Shown in pieces: positions 40,673 through 45,060 of a DNA stretch of 64,000 nucleotides (its first letter is position 1; each line of letters starts with the position of its first letter). The notes beneath the pieces are model-generated. The model saw nothing but the letters and a program-made list of their open reading frames with translations. It searched no databases and had not been told where the DNA came from. This stretch comes from Tautonia plasticadhaerens. GTDB lineage: Bacteria; Planctomycetota; Planctomycetia; Isosphaerales; Isosphaeraceae. Where the stretch lies: NCBI RefSeq assembly GCF_007752535.1, contig NZ_CP036426.1, forward strand, positions 1,302,001 to 1,366,000. Reading direction: 5' to 3'. Both the position numbers and the translations under genes were made by a program.

Positions 40673-40822
40673 CCGCCCCACCCGCGTTCGGCGCCCCCGT
40701 TCGTCCTCGCCGACTCCCTCCCCGGACGATGCATCCGGCGAGATCCTGCCCAGATCGGGCGTTCCCGGCCCGATCCCCCGCATTCGGGAAAGCCGGGGGC
40801 CGGGTGGGGTGGGATCGGTGGA

Positions 40823-40840
40823 CGCGCAACGCGTTGCGCG
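40823..40840. repeat. 18-bp perfect palindrome
   Basis: CGCGCAACGCGTTGCGCG is its own reverse complement. It lies 150 bases after corA. It could be a protein-binding site or part of a repeated palindromic element. Confidence 0.6.
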
Positions 40841-40863
40841 CCATCGCCGACCCCGCACCCCGG

Positions 40864-40944
40864 CCCTCTCCCCGCTCGCGGGGAGAGGGGGCTCCGGACC
40901 CTCGCCCCCGTTGGCGGGGGAGAGGGTGGGCGCAGCCCGAGTGA
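40864..40944. repeat. Paired hairpin element of the GGGAGAGGG type
   Basis: CCCTCTCCCC (40864-40873) pairs with GGGGAGAGGG (40880-40889), and CCCTCGCCCCCG (40899-40910) pairs with CGGGGGAGAGGG (40915-40926) with one mismatch. They are followed by GTGGGCGCAGCCCGAGTGAGGGGGG. This layout resembles dispersed extragenic palindromic elements in many GC-rich genomes. Confidence 0.6.
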
Positions 40945-41381
40945 GGGGGGATCGGACGATCCGCCGGGCTTGGGTCCGAACTCCGGGACCCTCGCCCCGG
41001 CATGCGCCCCGGGATCGGGGGACGAGGGACGGGACCGATCGGGTAAGAGGAAGGCGGATGGACAACCGAAAGATCCTGTGATTGCCGATCGCCCCGACCT
41101 CGATAGTAATGTCGGGGGACGACGACATCCTCGCCGTCCCCCGTCCGTCGATCGACCGCCCGGCCTCGACTCGTCCCCCTCTTTGGCAATCCGAGCAGCA
41201 CCGTCCCATCGAGGCCCCTCGACGGCCGGGGCCGCCGATCCCGACCCGCCCGCCGGGATCGGCAGGCCCGAAGCGTGCGGGAGTCGACCCGACCTCCGGG
41301 TCGAGGGAGGACCCCCGGCCCTGTCGAACCGGCTCCTCCCCGGAGGGGCCGGGACCCCCGATCTGGCCGAGACCGCCCGGC

Positions 41382-41822
41382 GCGAAACGAACCCATCCTC
41401 GCCGGGGAGTTTGCGGAGCGAACCCATTCTCGATCGCCGAGACGGTTTCCCGTTCAGGGTTTAGGTCGTTGGCCCGGGGCGCACCGGGGCGCACCAGCCC
41501 ACGCCCGGACCACTCCGAAGGGCGTACGACGCCCTCCGACCGCCCCGCGACCGCCCCCCGGCTCGACGACCCCGCCCCGGCGGTCGAGTCGCGCGAAACG
41601 AAGCCGATCGGGCGCGACGTTCGCGCGGAGCGAACCCAATTGACATCGCGGTAAACCCGTTGAGGAAAGACGTTGCATCAGGTCGTACCGGGTAAGCGAG
41701 GCGCACCGGCCCGCTCGGCCTCGACTGGGATTCGGGAGGGAGATCGACCGGGGCCGGCAACACGTGAACTCGGGCGCAACGAACCCATTCCCCCGGAGCC
41801 GTTGCGCGGAGCGAACCCAATT
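41382..41822. repeat. Three copies of a bipartite GCGAACCCA repeat
   Basis: Units lie at 41382-41428, 41592-41641 and 41774-41822. Each has a first motif of the form ACGAA(C/G)CC(A/G)AT or similar (41387, 41598, 41779) and a second motif GCGAACCCA(A/T)T (41418, 41630, 41811), 31 to 32 bases apart, with GCGGAG or CGCGGAG before the second. The sequence between the motifs is not conserved. Spacing between units is about 210 and 182 bases. Confidence 0.7.
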
Positions 41823-41926
41823 CGATCCTCCGAACGTTGAGTTCCAGTTTTGACTTATGGCCGATTGAGGCGGCGCATTGATGGCGCACCGGCCGGTGCG
41901 GCGCGGCGCATCGGCCCCTCCCGTTC

Positions 41927-41935
41927 TGGTATGAT
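41927..41935 (+). promoter_or_regulatory. Extended -10 element before the GH38-like gene
   Basis: TGGTATGAT (41927-41935; TATGAT at 41930-41935) matches an extended -10. No convincing -35 is present. The gene begins 63 bases downstream. Confidence 0.4.
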
Positions 41936-41997
41936 CCGACGACCCGGCACCCCCGGCACGTTTCCCCCAGGCCCCGACCGAGCAAGGCGACTGCGAG

Positions 41998-44900
41998 ATG
42001 GTCAACGACGACGAACCCCGCCCCGACCGGCCGATCCCCGAGCCGACCGCCCCCGACGGCCCGCCCGGAGGGCCGGGGCCGGAGGCCGCCGTCGAGCCGT
42101 CCCCGGACCCCGAGCCCGCAGAGGCGACGAGCGAGCAGGAGGCCCCCGCCCCCGAGGGGCCGGTCGGCCCGAGGCGTCGGGTCGTGGTGATGATCGCCGA
42201 CAGCGGCCGGAGGCCGGAGGAGCCGATCGACGAGGCCGAGGCCGCCATCGTCTGGGCGGCCGTCTCGGCGGCCTGGCACCCGGCGGTCCTCTCCCGATGC
42301 GACGCGACCCCGGAGGTCGAGGACGTCGACGCCCCGGGCGTCCCCCGGGAGGGCGAGGTCCGGCTGATCGCAGGCCGGGGGGTCGGCCACCTGAACTACG
42401 AGTACCGGGACCAGGGTTCCGAGGTCGGCGTCCCCGTCCTGATGATCGAGGCCGGCGAGTCCGACCGGGAGGGACTGGCCCGCCTGATCCTGGAGGCGAT
42501 CGAACCCGGCGCCGACCCGGGCCCCGCCGACGACCCGACCGTCGGCGACTTCTACGCCCTGGGGGCCTCCCGGTGGTGGGTCCGGGACCTGACGATCGGC
42601 ATGGAGCACGTCGACGTGCTCGACGCCGAGGCCCTCGGCCGGGAGGCGATCGGCGGCGCGAAGGCCTGGGCCTCGGGGGACGCCAAGGGGGCCGTCAACC
42701 GGCTCCGGGCCTCCTTCGAGCTGCTGACCGAGGCGAGGGAGCGGATCTACCCGGTCGACTCCTTCCTCGTCGACCTGCACCTGCTCGACGGCTCCTCCCC
42801 CGCCGAGGCCCTCGACGACGCCCTGGAGGCCAGGGCCCCCTTCACCCTGATCGCCCCGGCCCAGGCGATCGAGGCGATGGCCGGGAAGAACCCCGAGGCG
42901 ATGGCCCGCCTCCGGTCGGCGATCGACGAGGGCTGGGCCGACGTGGCCGGCGGCCCGTTCGCCGAGACGGGGGAGTCGCTCCGCCCGGTCGAGACGATCC
43001 TCTGGCAATTCCGGCAGGGCTCGGCCACCTACCGGAAACACCTGGACGACCGGACGGTCGAGACCCTGGCCGGGCGCCGGTTCGCCCTCTACCCGATGCG
43101 GCCCCAGGTCGCCAAGCGGTTCGGCTTCCGCTACGGCCTGCACCTGGCCTTCGACGACGGCACCTTCCCGATCATCCGGGAGTCGAAGCGGCTCTGGGAG
43201 TCTCCCGAGGGGGCGAACCTGGAGTCGCTGACCCGTCCCCCGCTGGCGGCGGACAAGGATGCCACGGCGTTGACCCTCGCCTGGGAACTGGCGAAGTCGA
43301 TGCGGGACGACCACACGGCCACGCTCGGCCTGGTCCACTGGCCGGATCGGGTCGCCGACTGGTTCCGGGACATCCGGAGGGTGGCGGGGTACTCCCCCGT
43401 CCTCGCCCGGTGGGCCACCCTGGGGGACTACTTCCACCTGACCGACCGCCCCTATGAGGTCCTCCGGCCGAAGCTGGACCAGTACGTCACCCCGTACCTG
43501 GAGCAGGCCGTCTCCCGGGGGGACCCGAGCCCGATCGGCCGTCGGGCCCGCCACGCCCGGCTCCGTGCCCGTCTCGACCTGGCCGACGGGCTCCGGTCCC
43601 TCGCCGCCGCCCTGGACTTCGTCGGGGAGCCGATCCCCGACGAGGAAGGCCCCCGCCCCGCCGGCTCGTCCGCCTTCGACGAGGCCGGTCGCCTGCTGGA
43701 GACGGGCATGCTCGACGAGGCGGAGGCGGCCATCGCCGCCCTCGAATCCCGATGGGCGGGCGAGGCGGGCCGCCGGGTCGTCCCGGCGACCGAAGAGGGG
43801 AACGGGGCCTCGGCGGGGCAGGGGGCGGGGGACCTGGTCCTCAACCCGATGTCGATCCCGAGGAGGGTCTCCGTGGTCCTGCCCGAGGCGTCGGGCCCGG
43901 TCCCCTCCGAGGGGCCGGTCCGGGTCTCCCAGTTCACGGCCGAGGGGACCGAGGCGGTCGTCACCCTCGCCGGGTTCGGCTTCGCCTGGATCCCCCGCGA
44001 CCGACCCGGGATCCGGGAGGCCCCGGCGGGCCCCTCGGAGACCGTCCAGGCCCGGGGCCGGGTCCTCCGCAACGAGATGCTCCGGGCCGAGGTCGACGAG
44101 TCGACCGGAGGCCTCCGCGCCGTGATGGCCGCCGGCGAGGACGAGCCCCGGTTGGCCCAGCAACTGGTCATCGCCGGGGTCAGCGTGACGGACAAGAAGG
44201 GCCAGGTCCGCCACAGCCGGATGAAGGCGACCGGGTACGAGGTCGAGTACGGCGGCCCGGCCCTGGTGCAGGCGGTGTCGACCGGCCAGATCCTCCACCC
44301 GACCGAGGACCGCCCCCTGGCCGGGTTCCGCCAGCGGTTCCGCCTCTGGAGCGGCCGTCCGGTGCTGGAGCTGGAGGTCGAACTGACCGAGCTGGATGAG
44401 GCCTGGCTCGGGTCGATCGCCGACGGCCCGGCCTGGTCGCGGTACCTGGCCTGCCGCTGGGCCTGGCCCGACGGCAACGCGACCCTCCGCCGCTCCTCGC
44501 TCCTGGGCCTGGAGGCGACGACGGCCGACCGCCCCGAGACGGCCGAGGTGCTGGACGTCACCGCCCGCCGCCAGCGGACGGCCCTGCTGTTCGGCGGCCT
44601 GGCGCACCACCAGCGGCACGGGACGAGGATGCTGGACACCCTGCTGGTGGCCGGCAAGGAATCGGAGCGGTCCTTCCGGCTGGGCGTCGCCCTGGACCTG
44701 GAGCACCCGTTCCAGGCCGCGCTGGACCTGCTCGCCCCGCCGGCCGTCGTGCCGACCGCCGGGGGCCCTCCCCGGTCCGGGCCGACCGGCTGGTTCTTCC
44801 ACCTCGACGCGAAGTCGGTGGCCGTCACCCGGGTCGAGCCGGTGGTGATCGACGGCGAGGGCCGGGGGCTGGCCTTCCACCTTCTGGAGACGGGAGGCAG

Positions 44901-45060
44901 GTCGGTCCGCTGCAAGCTCCGCCTGTTCCGGGAGCCGGTCTCGGCCCGCCAGACCGACTTCAACGACGAGCGGATCGTGGAGCTGTCGGTGACCGGGGAC
45001 GCGGTCCAGCTCGACCTGACCCCCCACGAGCTGGCGAGGGTGGTCGTCACCCTGGCTTGA
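41998..45060 (+). CDS. GH38-like protein (alpha-mannosidase-type beta-sandwich), catalysis uncertain
   Basis: The 1020-residue product begins with a disordered Pro/Glu-rich segment (1-60). Residues 60-640 look like an alpha/beta region with RRVVVMIADSG, RYGLHLAFDDGTFPI and YSPVLARWATLGDYFHL. The second half resembles the GH38 middle and C-terminal beta domains; LRNEMLRAEVDESTGGLRAVM (about 690-710) is the typical start of that sandwich, and RFRLWSGRPVLELEVELTELDE and RMLDTLLVAGKESERSF follow. I could not place the GH38 nucleophile aspartate with confidence, so it may be a catalytically altered relative. Signal peptide is absent. The extended -10 element lies just upstream. Confidence 0.5.
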   Translation: MVNDDEPRPDRPIPEPTAPDGPPGGPGPEAAVEPSPDPEPAEATSEQEAPAPEGPVGPRRRVVVMIADSGRRPEEPIDEAEAAIVWAAVSAAWHPAVLSRCDATPEVEDVDAPGVPREGEVRLIAGRGVGHLNYEYRDQGSEVGVPVLMIEAGESDREGLARLILEAIEPGADPGPADDPTVGDFYALGASRWWVRDLTIGMEHVDVLDAEALGREAIGGAKAWASGDAKGAVNRLRASFELLTEARERIYPVDSFLVDLHLLDGSSPAEALDDALEARAPFTLIAPAQAIEAMAGKNPEAMARLRSAIDEGWADVAGGPFAETGESLRPVETILWQFRQGSATYRKHLDDRTVETLAGRRFALYPMRPQVAKRFGFRYGLHLAFDDGTFPIIRESKRLWESPEGANLESLTRPPLAADKDATALTLAWELAKSMRDDHTATLGLVHWPDRVADWFRDIRRVAGYSPVLARWATLGDYFHLTDRPYEVLRPKLDQYVTPYLEQAVSRGDPSPIGRRARHARLRARLDLADGLRSLAAALDFVGEPIPDEEGPRPAGSSAFDEAGRLLETGMLDEAEAAIAALESRWAGEAGRRVVPATEEGNGASAGQGAGDLVLNPMSIPRRVSVVLPEASGPVPSEGPVRVSQFTAEGTEAVVTLAGFGFAWIPRDRPGIREAPAGPSETVQARGRVLRNEMLRAEVDESTGGLRAVMAAGEDEPRLAQQLVIAGVSVTDKKGQVRHSRMKATGYEVEYGGPALVQAVSTGQILHPTEDRPLAGFRQRFRLWSGRPVLELEVELTELDEAWLGSIADGPAWSRYLACRWAWPDGNATLRRSSLLGLEATTADRPETAEVLDVTARRQRTALLFGGLAHHQRHGTRMLDTLLVAGKESERSFRLGVALDLEHPFQAALDLLAPPAVVPTAGGPPRSGPTGWFFHLDAKSVAVTRVEPVVIDGEGRGLAFHLLETGGRSVRCKLRLFREPVSARQTDFNDERIVELSVTGDAVQLDLTPHELARVVVTLA

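What the first reader, a model, noticed from the sequence alone, without database searches (positions are those of the whole stretch)
40673..41997. A 1.3-kb non-coding block with three copies of a bipartite GCGAACCCA repeat
Three units with paired motifs 31 to 32 bases apart occur at about 200-base intervals, with only the motifs conserved. The constant spacing of close to three helical turns suggests dimeric protein binding or a structured RNA. Nearby are a paired hairpin element and an 18-bp palindrome.
Basis: seen in the sequence. Interest (0 to 1): 0.6.

Follow-up and report, generated by a model that had tools for sequence, protein, structure and literature searches.

The report
Helically phased DNA repeat arrays, Tautonia
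The repeats are one of about sixty arrays of a DNA element scattered through this planctomycete genome, whose pieces are spaced by whole turns of the double helix and which also sits at the 3' end of an unnamed, much-duplicated gene family, suggesting an undescribed DNA-protein system.

Summary
CGGA(A/G)CGAACCCA(A/T) occurs 108 times in this genome (size matches Tautonia plasticadhaerens ElP) and 0 times reversed. I found 61 arrays of 1-4 units, none of mixed orientation; 53 lie outside called ORFs.

A unit is CGGAGCGAACCCATTT, then CGCAA..TTGCG, then GGCGCACCG. The distance from first to last block falls into five classes (64-66, 75-77, 86-88, 98, 109-111) in 105 of 106 measurable units and, taking one unit per array, in 60 of 60 arrays (22% expected); period 11.27 bp. 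Three other Tautonia genomes show the same phase. GCGCACC itself recurs at 10-12, 22-24 and 33-36 bp. This looks like DNA under helical-phase selection, not RNA.

The 8 coding arrays all lie at the 3' end of one unnamed protein family (0-45 copies in 37 Isosphaeraceae genomes). In other genomes the motif sits at that gene's 3' end too, in any reading frame or after the stop (33 of 51 sampled genes).

Best reading: a selected multi-site nucleoprotein assembly element, probably bound by that family or a partner. Rival: a REP/RAYT-like mobile element. Binding and function are inferred.

The parts
40673..41997 (+). intergenic region holding the array
41387..41395 (+). unit 1, upstream motif ACGAACCCA
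41414..41429 (+). unit 1, block 1 CGGAGCGAACCCATTC
41479..41485 (+). unit 1, GCGCACC at +65
41489..41495 (+). unit 1, second GCGCACC at +75
41598..41606 (+). unit 2, degenerate upstream motif ACGAAGCCG
41626..41641 (+). unit 2, block 1 CGGAGCGAACCCAATT
41701..41707 (+). unit 2, GCGCACC at +75
41779..41787 (+). unit 3, upstream motif ACGAACCCA
41807..41822 (+). unit 3, block 1 CGGAGCGAACCCAATT
41873..41879 (+). unit 3, imperfect GCGCATT, 11 bp before the intact GCGCACC
   Evidence: read
41884..41890 (+). unit 3, GCGCACC at +77
41998..45060 (+). gene downstream; one ortholog in each of 3 other Tautonia genomes (79-84% identity), each with a related array upstream

Best explanation
The block is an array of three copies of a dispersed double-stranded DNA element that works as an assembly site for an oligomeric DNA-binding complex. 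SHOWN: three sequence blocks lie a whole number of helical turns apart, at about 11.3 bp per turn; copies differ by adding or losing whole turns; each array has one orientation; most arrays are intergenic; some recur at orthologous places, same side and orientation, in related species although the surrounding sequence has diverged; the same motif sits at the 3' end of many members of an unnamed, expanded protein family. INFERRED: proteins bound at the blocks must face the same side of the DNA to contact one another, the DNA between being bent or looped; the unnamed family (or a partner of it) is the binder; the complexes act where they lie as local chromosome-organising or expression-insulating sites rather than as switches for one pathway.
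For: Phasing: 105 of 106 measurable units (of 108) have their first GCGCAC(C/T) at 64-66/75-77/86-88/98/109-111 (R 0.92; highest of 1000 jittered nulls 0.43). One unit per array: 60 of 60 measurable arrays (of 61) are in phase windows that a uniform spread would hit 22% of the time; fitted step 11.27 bp, 95% interval 11.12-11.38. CGCAA lies mostly at 22-23, 33-34 or 43-45, and TTGCG mostly 18, 29-30 or 41 from GCGCACC. In G001-G003, R is 0.84 at the preset period over 34 distances, null maximum 0.58 of 5000; 26 of 34 fall in the same five classes. Motif pairs: G000 R 0.82, n=34, 0 of 5000 nulls reach it; G001-G003 R 0.59, n=21, 0.0004 of nulls. GCGCACC-GCGCACC spacings fall at 10-12, 22-24, 33-36, 44-48; the reversed word, itself rarer, gives 1 pair in G000 and none in G001-G003. 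In-vivo helical repeats fitted from lac looping are 10.95-11.60 bp (passages of PMC1762422). Maintenance: 10 of 41 motif-bearing loci fetched from three other Tautonia genomes hold an ortholog (at least 70% identity) of a gene flanking a G000 array, about 1 expected by my estimate; in 9 of the 10 the motif lies on the same side of that gene in the same orientation. The window's own locus keeps an array in 3 of 3 species. Gene link: 33 of 51 family genes sampled outside G000 have the motif at the 3' end, 0 of 51 in the first part of the ORF or the 700 nt upstream, 3 of 51 antisense. Protein copies against motif density in 37 Isosphaeraceae genomes: rho 0.58, p 1.7e-4; against control density rho -0.07.
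Against: No binding data exist. The protein family has no usable domain match, so DNA binding by it is unproven. Copy number within the genus runs from 11 to 108, and two pairs of units at different loci (both L095 with L102) are 78-82% alike over just the unit length, which looks like dispersal. G016 has 242 motif matches with 1 protein hit; G006, G041 and G050 have many proteins and few motifs. Sampled genes of G006 (0 of 3), G018 (0 of 3), G042 (0 of 7) and G045 (0 of 1) lack the sense motif. One shared-gene locus (L175) has its array elsewhere. In G001-G003, 8 of 34 distances fall outside the five classes, one (102) plainly out of phase. The GCGCACC ladder could come partly from 11-12 bp tandem slippage. 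Pair spacings in other genera (for example 40-41 in G005, 36 and 42 in G021) do not all fit 11.3.
Confidence: 0.55

Rival explanations
1. A REP/REPIN-like or MITE-like mobile element, copied through the genome by the unnamed protein family, whose own genes carry a copy at the 3' end; the helical spacing is a requirement of the transposition complex.
For: 108, 66, 14 and 11 copies in four species of one genus. Units of loci L095 and L102 are 82% alike over 132 nt, ending near the unit borders. The gene family has 0-45 copies in 37 genomes, and five close copies share body and leader but mostly not flanks. REPINs likewise cluster beside RAYT genes (passages of PMC3116915).
Against: Units are mostly unalike inside (mean identity 40% between arrays of the same length class) yet stay in phase, which dead copies would not. 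Some arrays persist at orthologous sites. No transposase domain was found. Target-site duplications and empty sites were not looked for.
Confidence: 0.25
2. Operator arrays of a conventional regulator that controls a defined set of genes.
For: Many arrays lie upstream of genes, including the window's; phased repeats are typical of operators.
Against: Among 105 of the 106 flanking genes no Pfam family matches more than 3 members. Orientation to the next gene is mixed: 32 same, 21 opposite of 53. Ten arrays end 12-51 nt from the stop codon of a gene that runs towards them. The motif also lies at 3' ends of genes.
Confidence: 0.1
3. Ancestral tandem repeats: a former ladder of about 11-bp repeats arose by slippage, and the surviving words keep its register without present selection.
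For: GCGCACC recurs at 10-12 bp steps; spacing class is shared within arrays in 45 of 58 pairs against 26% of all pairs.
Against: The register also holds between unlike words (block 1 to CGCAA, TTGCG to GCGCACC) across sequence with no evident repeat; neutral indels would have destroyed it in copies that are 40% alike; it recurs in other species.
Confidence: 0.07
4. A structured or regulatory RNA.
For: GGTGCGCC and GGCGCACC are complementary and bracket many units; CGCAA and TTGCG are complementary.
Against: A GTGCGC-type word is present near -11 in only 45 of 108 units, while 106 of 108 have GCGCAC(C/T) downstream. RNAalifold on 31 units gives -0.3 kcal/mol and no covariation. No Rfam hit. 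Steps of 11 nt on one side would not keep an RNA helix in register.
Confidence: 0.03

Closest known systems
REP/REPIN elements with RAYT (TnpA-REP) genes
   Same: many extragenic copies per genome; clusters; a linked gene family; the element lies beside the gene
   Different: not a hairpin, no inverted or alternating arrays, spacing set by helical turns, no transposase domain found, up to tens of gene copies per genome instead of single-copy RAYTs, element lies inside or just after the 3' end of the gene
Phased multi-site operators and looping systems (lac loops)
   Same: sites a whole number of helical turns apart, with an in-vivo-like repeat of about 11.3 bp
   Different: dispersed over about sixty sites with no shared target function seen; three different blocks; no known binder
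TAACTGA intergenic direct repeats of Beggiatoaceae (PMC4679880, abstract and outline seen)
   Same: short direct repeats, intergenic, many sets, no common function of the neighbours
   Different: [quoted passage not shown] the abstract mentions no helical phasing or linked gene family
Integron attC sites
   Same: repeated sites of variable length with inverted ends, located after genes; attC-like arrays even lie next to several of the family genes here
   Different: no RYYYAAC/GTTRRRY ends (definition recalled), helical phasing of double-stranded blocks, arrays hold no evident cassettes

Membership tests
REP/REPIN-RAYT | high-copy, extragenic | tested here: met
   108 core motifs, 0 reversed; 53 of 61 arrays outside called ORFs
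REP/REPIN-RAYT | palindromic, hairpin-forming unit | tested here: not met
   no consensus structure in 31 units
REP/REPIN-RAYT | inverted or alternating orientation in clusters | tested here: not met
   0 of 61 arrays of mixed orientation, 35 of them with two or more units
REP/REPIN-RAYT | linked HuH/Y1 transposase gene | tested here: not met
   a linked family exists, but 27 members scanned give no transposase Pfam or NCBIfam match
MITE | terminal inverted repeats in most copies | tested here: not met
   a GTGCGC-type word opposite GGCGCACC near -11 in 45 of 108 units
MITE | target-site duplications and empty sites | not tested
   no empty-site comparison was made
structured ncRNA | conserved fold or known family | tested here: not met
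pathway regulon operator | neighbouring genes share a function | tested here: not met
   largest shared Pfam family 3 of 105 flanking proteins scanned, of 106
helically phased nucleoprotein site | sites spaced by integral helical turns | tested here: met
helically phased nucleoprotein site | specific protein bound in vivo | not testable with these tools
   no binding data
integron attC | RYYYAAC...GTTRRRY ends (recalled) | tested here: not met
   absent from the unit consensus; the attC-like arrays of this genome are a different sequence

The most novel reading that the evidence does not exclude
The unnamed protein family of the Isosphaeraceae and its helically phased DNA element form a new kind of two-part genome system: a large paralogous family of DNA-organising proteins, many of whose genes carry a binding lattice at the 3' end, with dozens of further lattices kept at intergenic places, unrelated to REP/RAYT, CRISPR or known nucleoid-protein systems.
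Probability: 0.35. Interest if true: 0.85.

Novelty: new variant of a known kind. Interest (0 to 1): 0.72.

Why it matters
A natural DNA element whose copies are unalike inside yet stay in helical register to within a base or so would be an unusual genomic record of DNA phasing in living cells. It gives a helical repeat (11.27 bp) for a planctomycete from sequence alone. It also points at one testable candidate partner, a protein family for which Pfam and NCBIfam gave no family match, and so turns a curiosity of three repeats into a system that a footprint and a pull-down could settle.

Tried and rejected
A first gene caller trained on the longest ORFs mixed sense and antisense frames and was discarded; a position-specific starting model fixed it. 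Local duplication without function: rejected. RNA: rejected. Pathway regulon: not supported. Peptide-level explanation of the motif in the genes: rejected because three reading frames and positions after the stop are used. Plasmid collection: no match for a 5-kb stretch of contig 2 (records near the window's genome may be left out there). Viral contigs: no relative of the protein. The one genome-contig hit outside Tautonia (Aeromonas rivuli) is about what chance allows for that pattern (my estimate, one to two expected). A thin stretch of the chromosome was seen and not pursued. Literature searches for the motif with Planctomycetes, for repeats with Isosphaeraceae/Tautonia, for intergenic or interspersed repeats in Planctomycetes, for Isosphaera/Singulisphaera repeats and paralogs, for the protein's peptide words and for phased dispersed repeats showed no report of this element or family. 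These cover open-access PMC papers only, and searches listed 20 of 18,969 and 15 of 19 papers, so the absence is not proven.

Papers: PMC1762422, PMC3116915, PMC7716859 and PMC5352709 passages seen; PMC8266576 and PMC4679880 abstract and outline; others only as search listings.

Full report
WHAT IS THERE. The block lies between a CorA-type transporter gene and a + strand gene at 41998. It holds three units on the + strand. Each has an upstream ACGAACCCA-like motif, then CGGAGCGAACCCA(A/T)T with the two motifs 31-32 bases apart, then GCGCACC 65-77 bases after the CGG. The window is bases 1302001-1366000 of an 8.67-Mb contig of a 9,395,224-base genome in 6 contigs. That size and replicon number equal those published for Tautonia plasticadhaerens ElP (passages of PMC7716859), so I take it to be that strain.

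GENOME-WIDE. (A/G)CGAACCCA(A/T) occurs 177 times in the genome against 7 for the reversed pattern. CGGA(A/G)CGAACCCA(A/T) occurs 108 times against 0. The bipartite pattern that I tried first matches only in this block (2 matches). I fetched the surroundings of these places and found 108 cores (CGG(A/G)(A/G)CGAACCCA(A/T)) in them. They form 61 arrays: 26 of one unit, 24 of two, 10 of three, 1 of four; 0 of 61 mix orientation; 53 lie outside called ORFs, although about 79% of the sequence is called coding in the part where I measured it (window and the first 46 loci). Gene calls are mine and approximate.

ANATOMY AND PHASE. In 31 units of one length class the conserved parts are CGGAGCGAACCCATTT (0-15), CGCAA (23-27), the TT of TTGCG (47-48) and GGCGCACCG (75-83), with little conservation between. 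The distance from block 1 to GCGCAC(C/T) is quantised: 105 of 106 measurable units fall in five narrow classes about 11.3 bp apart; the exception is 56. Counting one unit per array to avoid tandem copies, 60 of 60 measurable arrays are in phase; the fitted step is 11.27 bp, 95% interval 11.12-11.38. The step also appears, for most copies, from block 1 to CGCAA and from TTGCG to GCGCACC, between paired motifs (mostly 22-24, 31-35, 44), and more weakly between units (R 0.45, 45 spacings; 0.0002 of 10,000 nulls reach it). In loci of three other Tautonia genomes the classes recur: 34 distances, R 0.84, 26 of 34 in the same five classes, four more one base off, one (102) plainly out of phase. GCGCACC words repeat at 10-12, 22-24, 33-36 and 44-48 bp, most clearly in the other Tautonia genomes. 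Relaxed B-DNA would give about 10.5; fits of lac looping in living E. coli gave 10.95-11.60. I read this as selection for sites on one face of the DNA in vivo.

MAINTENANCE. Unit interiors of the same length class are on average 40% identical between arrays and 45% within arrays, against 33% in flanks, so most copies are old. Some arrays nevertheless recur at orthologous places. Of 41 motif-bearing loci fetched from three relatives (20 of G001, 10 of G002, 11 of G003), 10 hold an ortholog of at least 70% identity of a gene that flanks a G000 array. By chance I estimate about one (106 flanking genes of 7556, two flanks per locus). In 9 of these 10 the motif lies on the same side of the gene and in the same orientation as in G000; they correspond to 7 G000 arrays; in L175 it does not. 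In four such pairs aligned, DNA identity is 48-59% while motifs persist. Spacing class is kept in some (L086/L160, L074/L158 in part) and shifted by one or more turns in others (L151/L122, L138/L155); L158 also has a 102 and L173 has 132s. At the window's own locus the ortholog of the downstream gene (79-84% identity, one per genome) has an array upstream in 3 of 3 relatives. In G002 and G003 the CGAACCCA word has drifted to CGAACC followed by other bases, while GCGCACC words remain in 10-12 bp steps.

THE GENE FAMILY. All 8 arrays inside called ORFs are single units of the 109-111 class, in or over the 3' end of paralogs of one protein. In seven the core is read as R-S-E-P; in L142 my ORF uses another frame and stops within the unit. 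For those seven the spacing satisfies both the helix and the reading frame. One member has no Pfam or NCBIfam match; 27 members scanned give only isolated weak matches, each in one member, and no solved relative (best E 0.52). The family has 27 copies in G000 and 0-45 in 37 Isosphaeraceae genomes, 26 of which have it (counts may be limited by the search's scoring cap). In 198 other genomes drawn from the phylum, 5 have one partial match each. Of 51 family genes sampled outside G000, 33 have (A/G)CGAA(C/G)CCA within 420 nt before to 350 nt after the stop. Three of the 51 (L159, L162, L185) had been fetched for the motif; without them it is 30 of 48. None of 51 has it earlier in the ORF or in the 700 nt upstream as far as fetched, and 3 have it antisense. 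In G023 (13 of 13 genes) 15 of 18 copies are in frame 2, read as E-R-(T/S)-(Q/H) or G-R-T-H in those I translated. In G004 (6 of 7) it is read as T-K-P or lies 13-18 nt after the stop; in G010 (4 of 4) it lies 234-294 nt after the stop; in G021 5 of 6 have it. Use of three frames and of untranslated positions means that the DNA, not the peptide, is conserved. In G000 10 of 21 sampled paralogs have this word (8 of them in the arrays above); several others show related C-terminal peptide words, which I did not count. G006, G018, G042 and G045 show none in sense (0 of 14 together).

CO-OCCURRENCE. Over 37 Isosphaeraceae genomes, protein copies and ACGAA(C/G)CCA(A/T)T density correlate (rho 0.58, p 1.7e-4); protein copies and the reversed control do not. 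Phylogeny is not corrected for, and G016, G006, G041 and G050 are exceptions.

WHAT IT DOES. Neighbouring genes show no shared function (105 of 106 scanned), orientation to neighbours is mixed, and there is no RNA signature. A pathway switch and an RNA are therefore unlikely. A mobile element explains dispersal, copy-number differences and the gene link, but not the upkeep of phase in old, otherwise unalike copies. I therefore favour a selected nucleoprotein assembly site, perhaps spread originally by copying, with the unnamed family or its partner as binder. Binding, partner and cellular effect are inferences.

KNOWN KINDS. It works somewhat like REP/RAYT pairs in its gene link and like looping operators in its phasing, but fails the palindrome, orientation and transposase tests of the former and the shared-function test of a regulon. 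I saw no report of it in the open-access papers that my searches listed.

Noticed in passing
L090 (G000 C1:2699981-2711981) and L085, L096, L133, L134, L076, L142, L149, L082/L218: The genome's only integron integrase above the family cut-off (C1:2708613-2709554) has 10 attC-like sites before it and a family gene after it. Eight further family-gene loci have attC-like sites with no such integrase beside them, and 4 of these (L085, L096, L149, L218) carry an 80-89% identical copy of about 180-210 bp of the region that precedes the integrase gene (attI-like): satellite cassette arrays headed by a paralog of an unnamed gene.
   Followed up: partly
L085:4614-4778 and the same region in 9 other close paralogs: A conserved leader of about 165 bp (GAAAAAGTGACTG...TGATCTTAAGGGTGTACGGCCGA) precedes 10 of 11 family paralogs aligned (not L219; L090, beside the integrase, was not in that alignment and its leader looks different).
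   Followed up: partly
window 40864-40889 and 40899-40926: Two G+C-rich hairpins (CCCTCTCCCC...GGGGAGAGGG type) in tandem, resembling hairpin repeats that I recall from many bacterial genomes.
   Followed up: no
window 40823-40840: 18-bp perfect palindrome CGCGCAACGCGTTGCGCG; it contains the CGCAA and TTGCG words of the unit's middle block close together.
   Followed up: no
G000 C1 4.67-6.34 Mb: Only 2 of the 61 arrays lie in this 1.7-Mb stretch, about 12 expected if even; possibly a replication-terminus effect. Noted after the fact.
   Followed up: no
L254, L255 (G018): In 2 of 3 sampled family genes of G018 the motif lies at the 3' end on the opposite strand.
   Followed up: no
G023 C1:3705557-3706070 and C1:6685858-6686035; G010 C256:4675-4947: In other genera the motif forms tight tandem arrays of 24-27 bp period.
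   Followed up: no
G016, G045: 242 and 174 ACGAA(C/G)CCA(A/T)T matches, among the three highest densities with G010, yet 1 and 12 family proteins found: either more distant binders or another partner.
   Followed up: no
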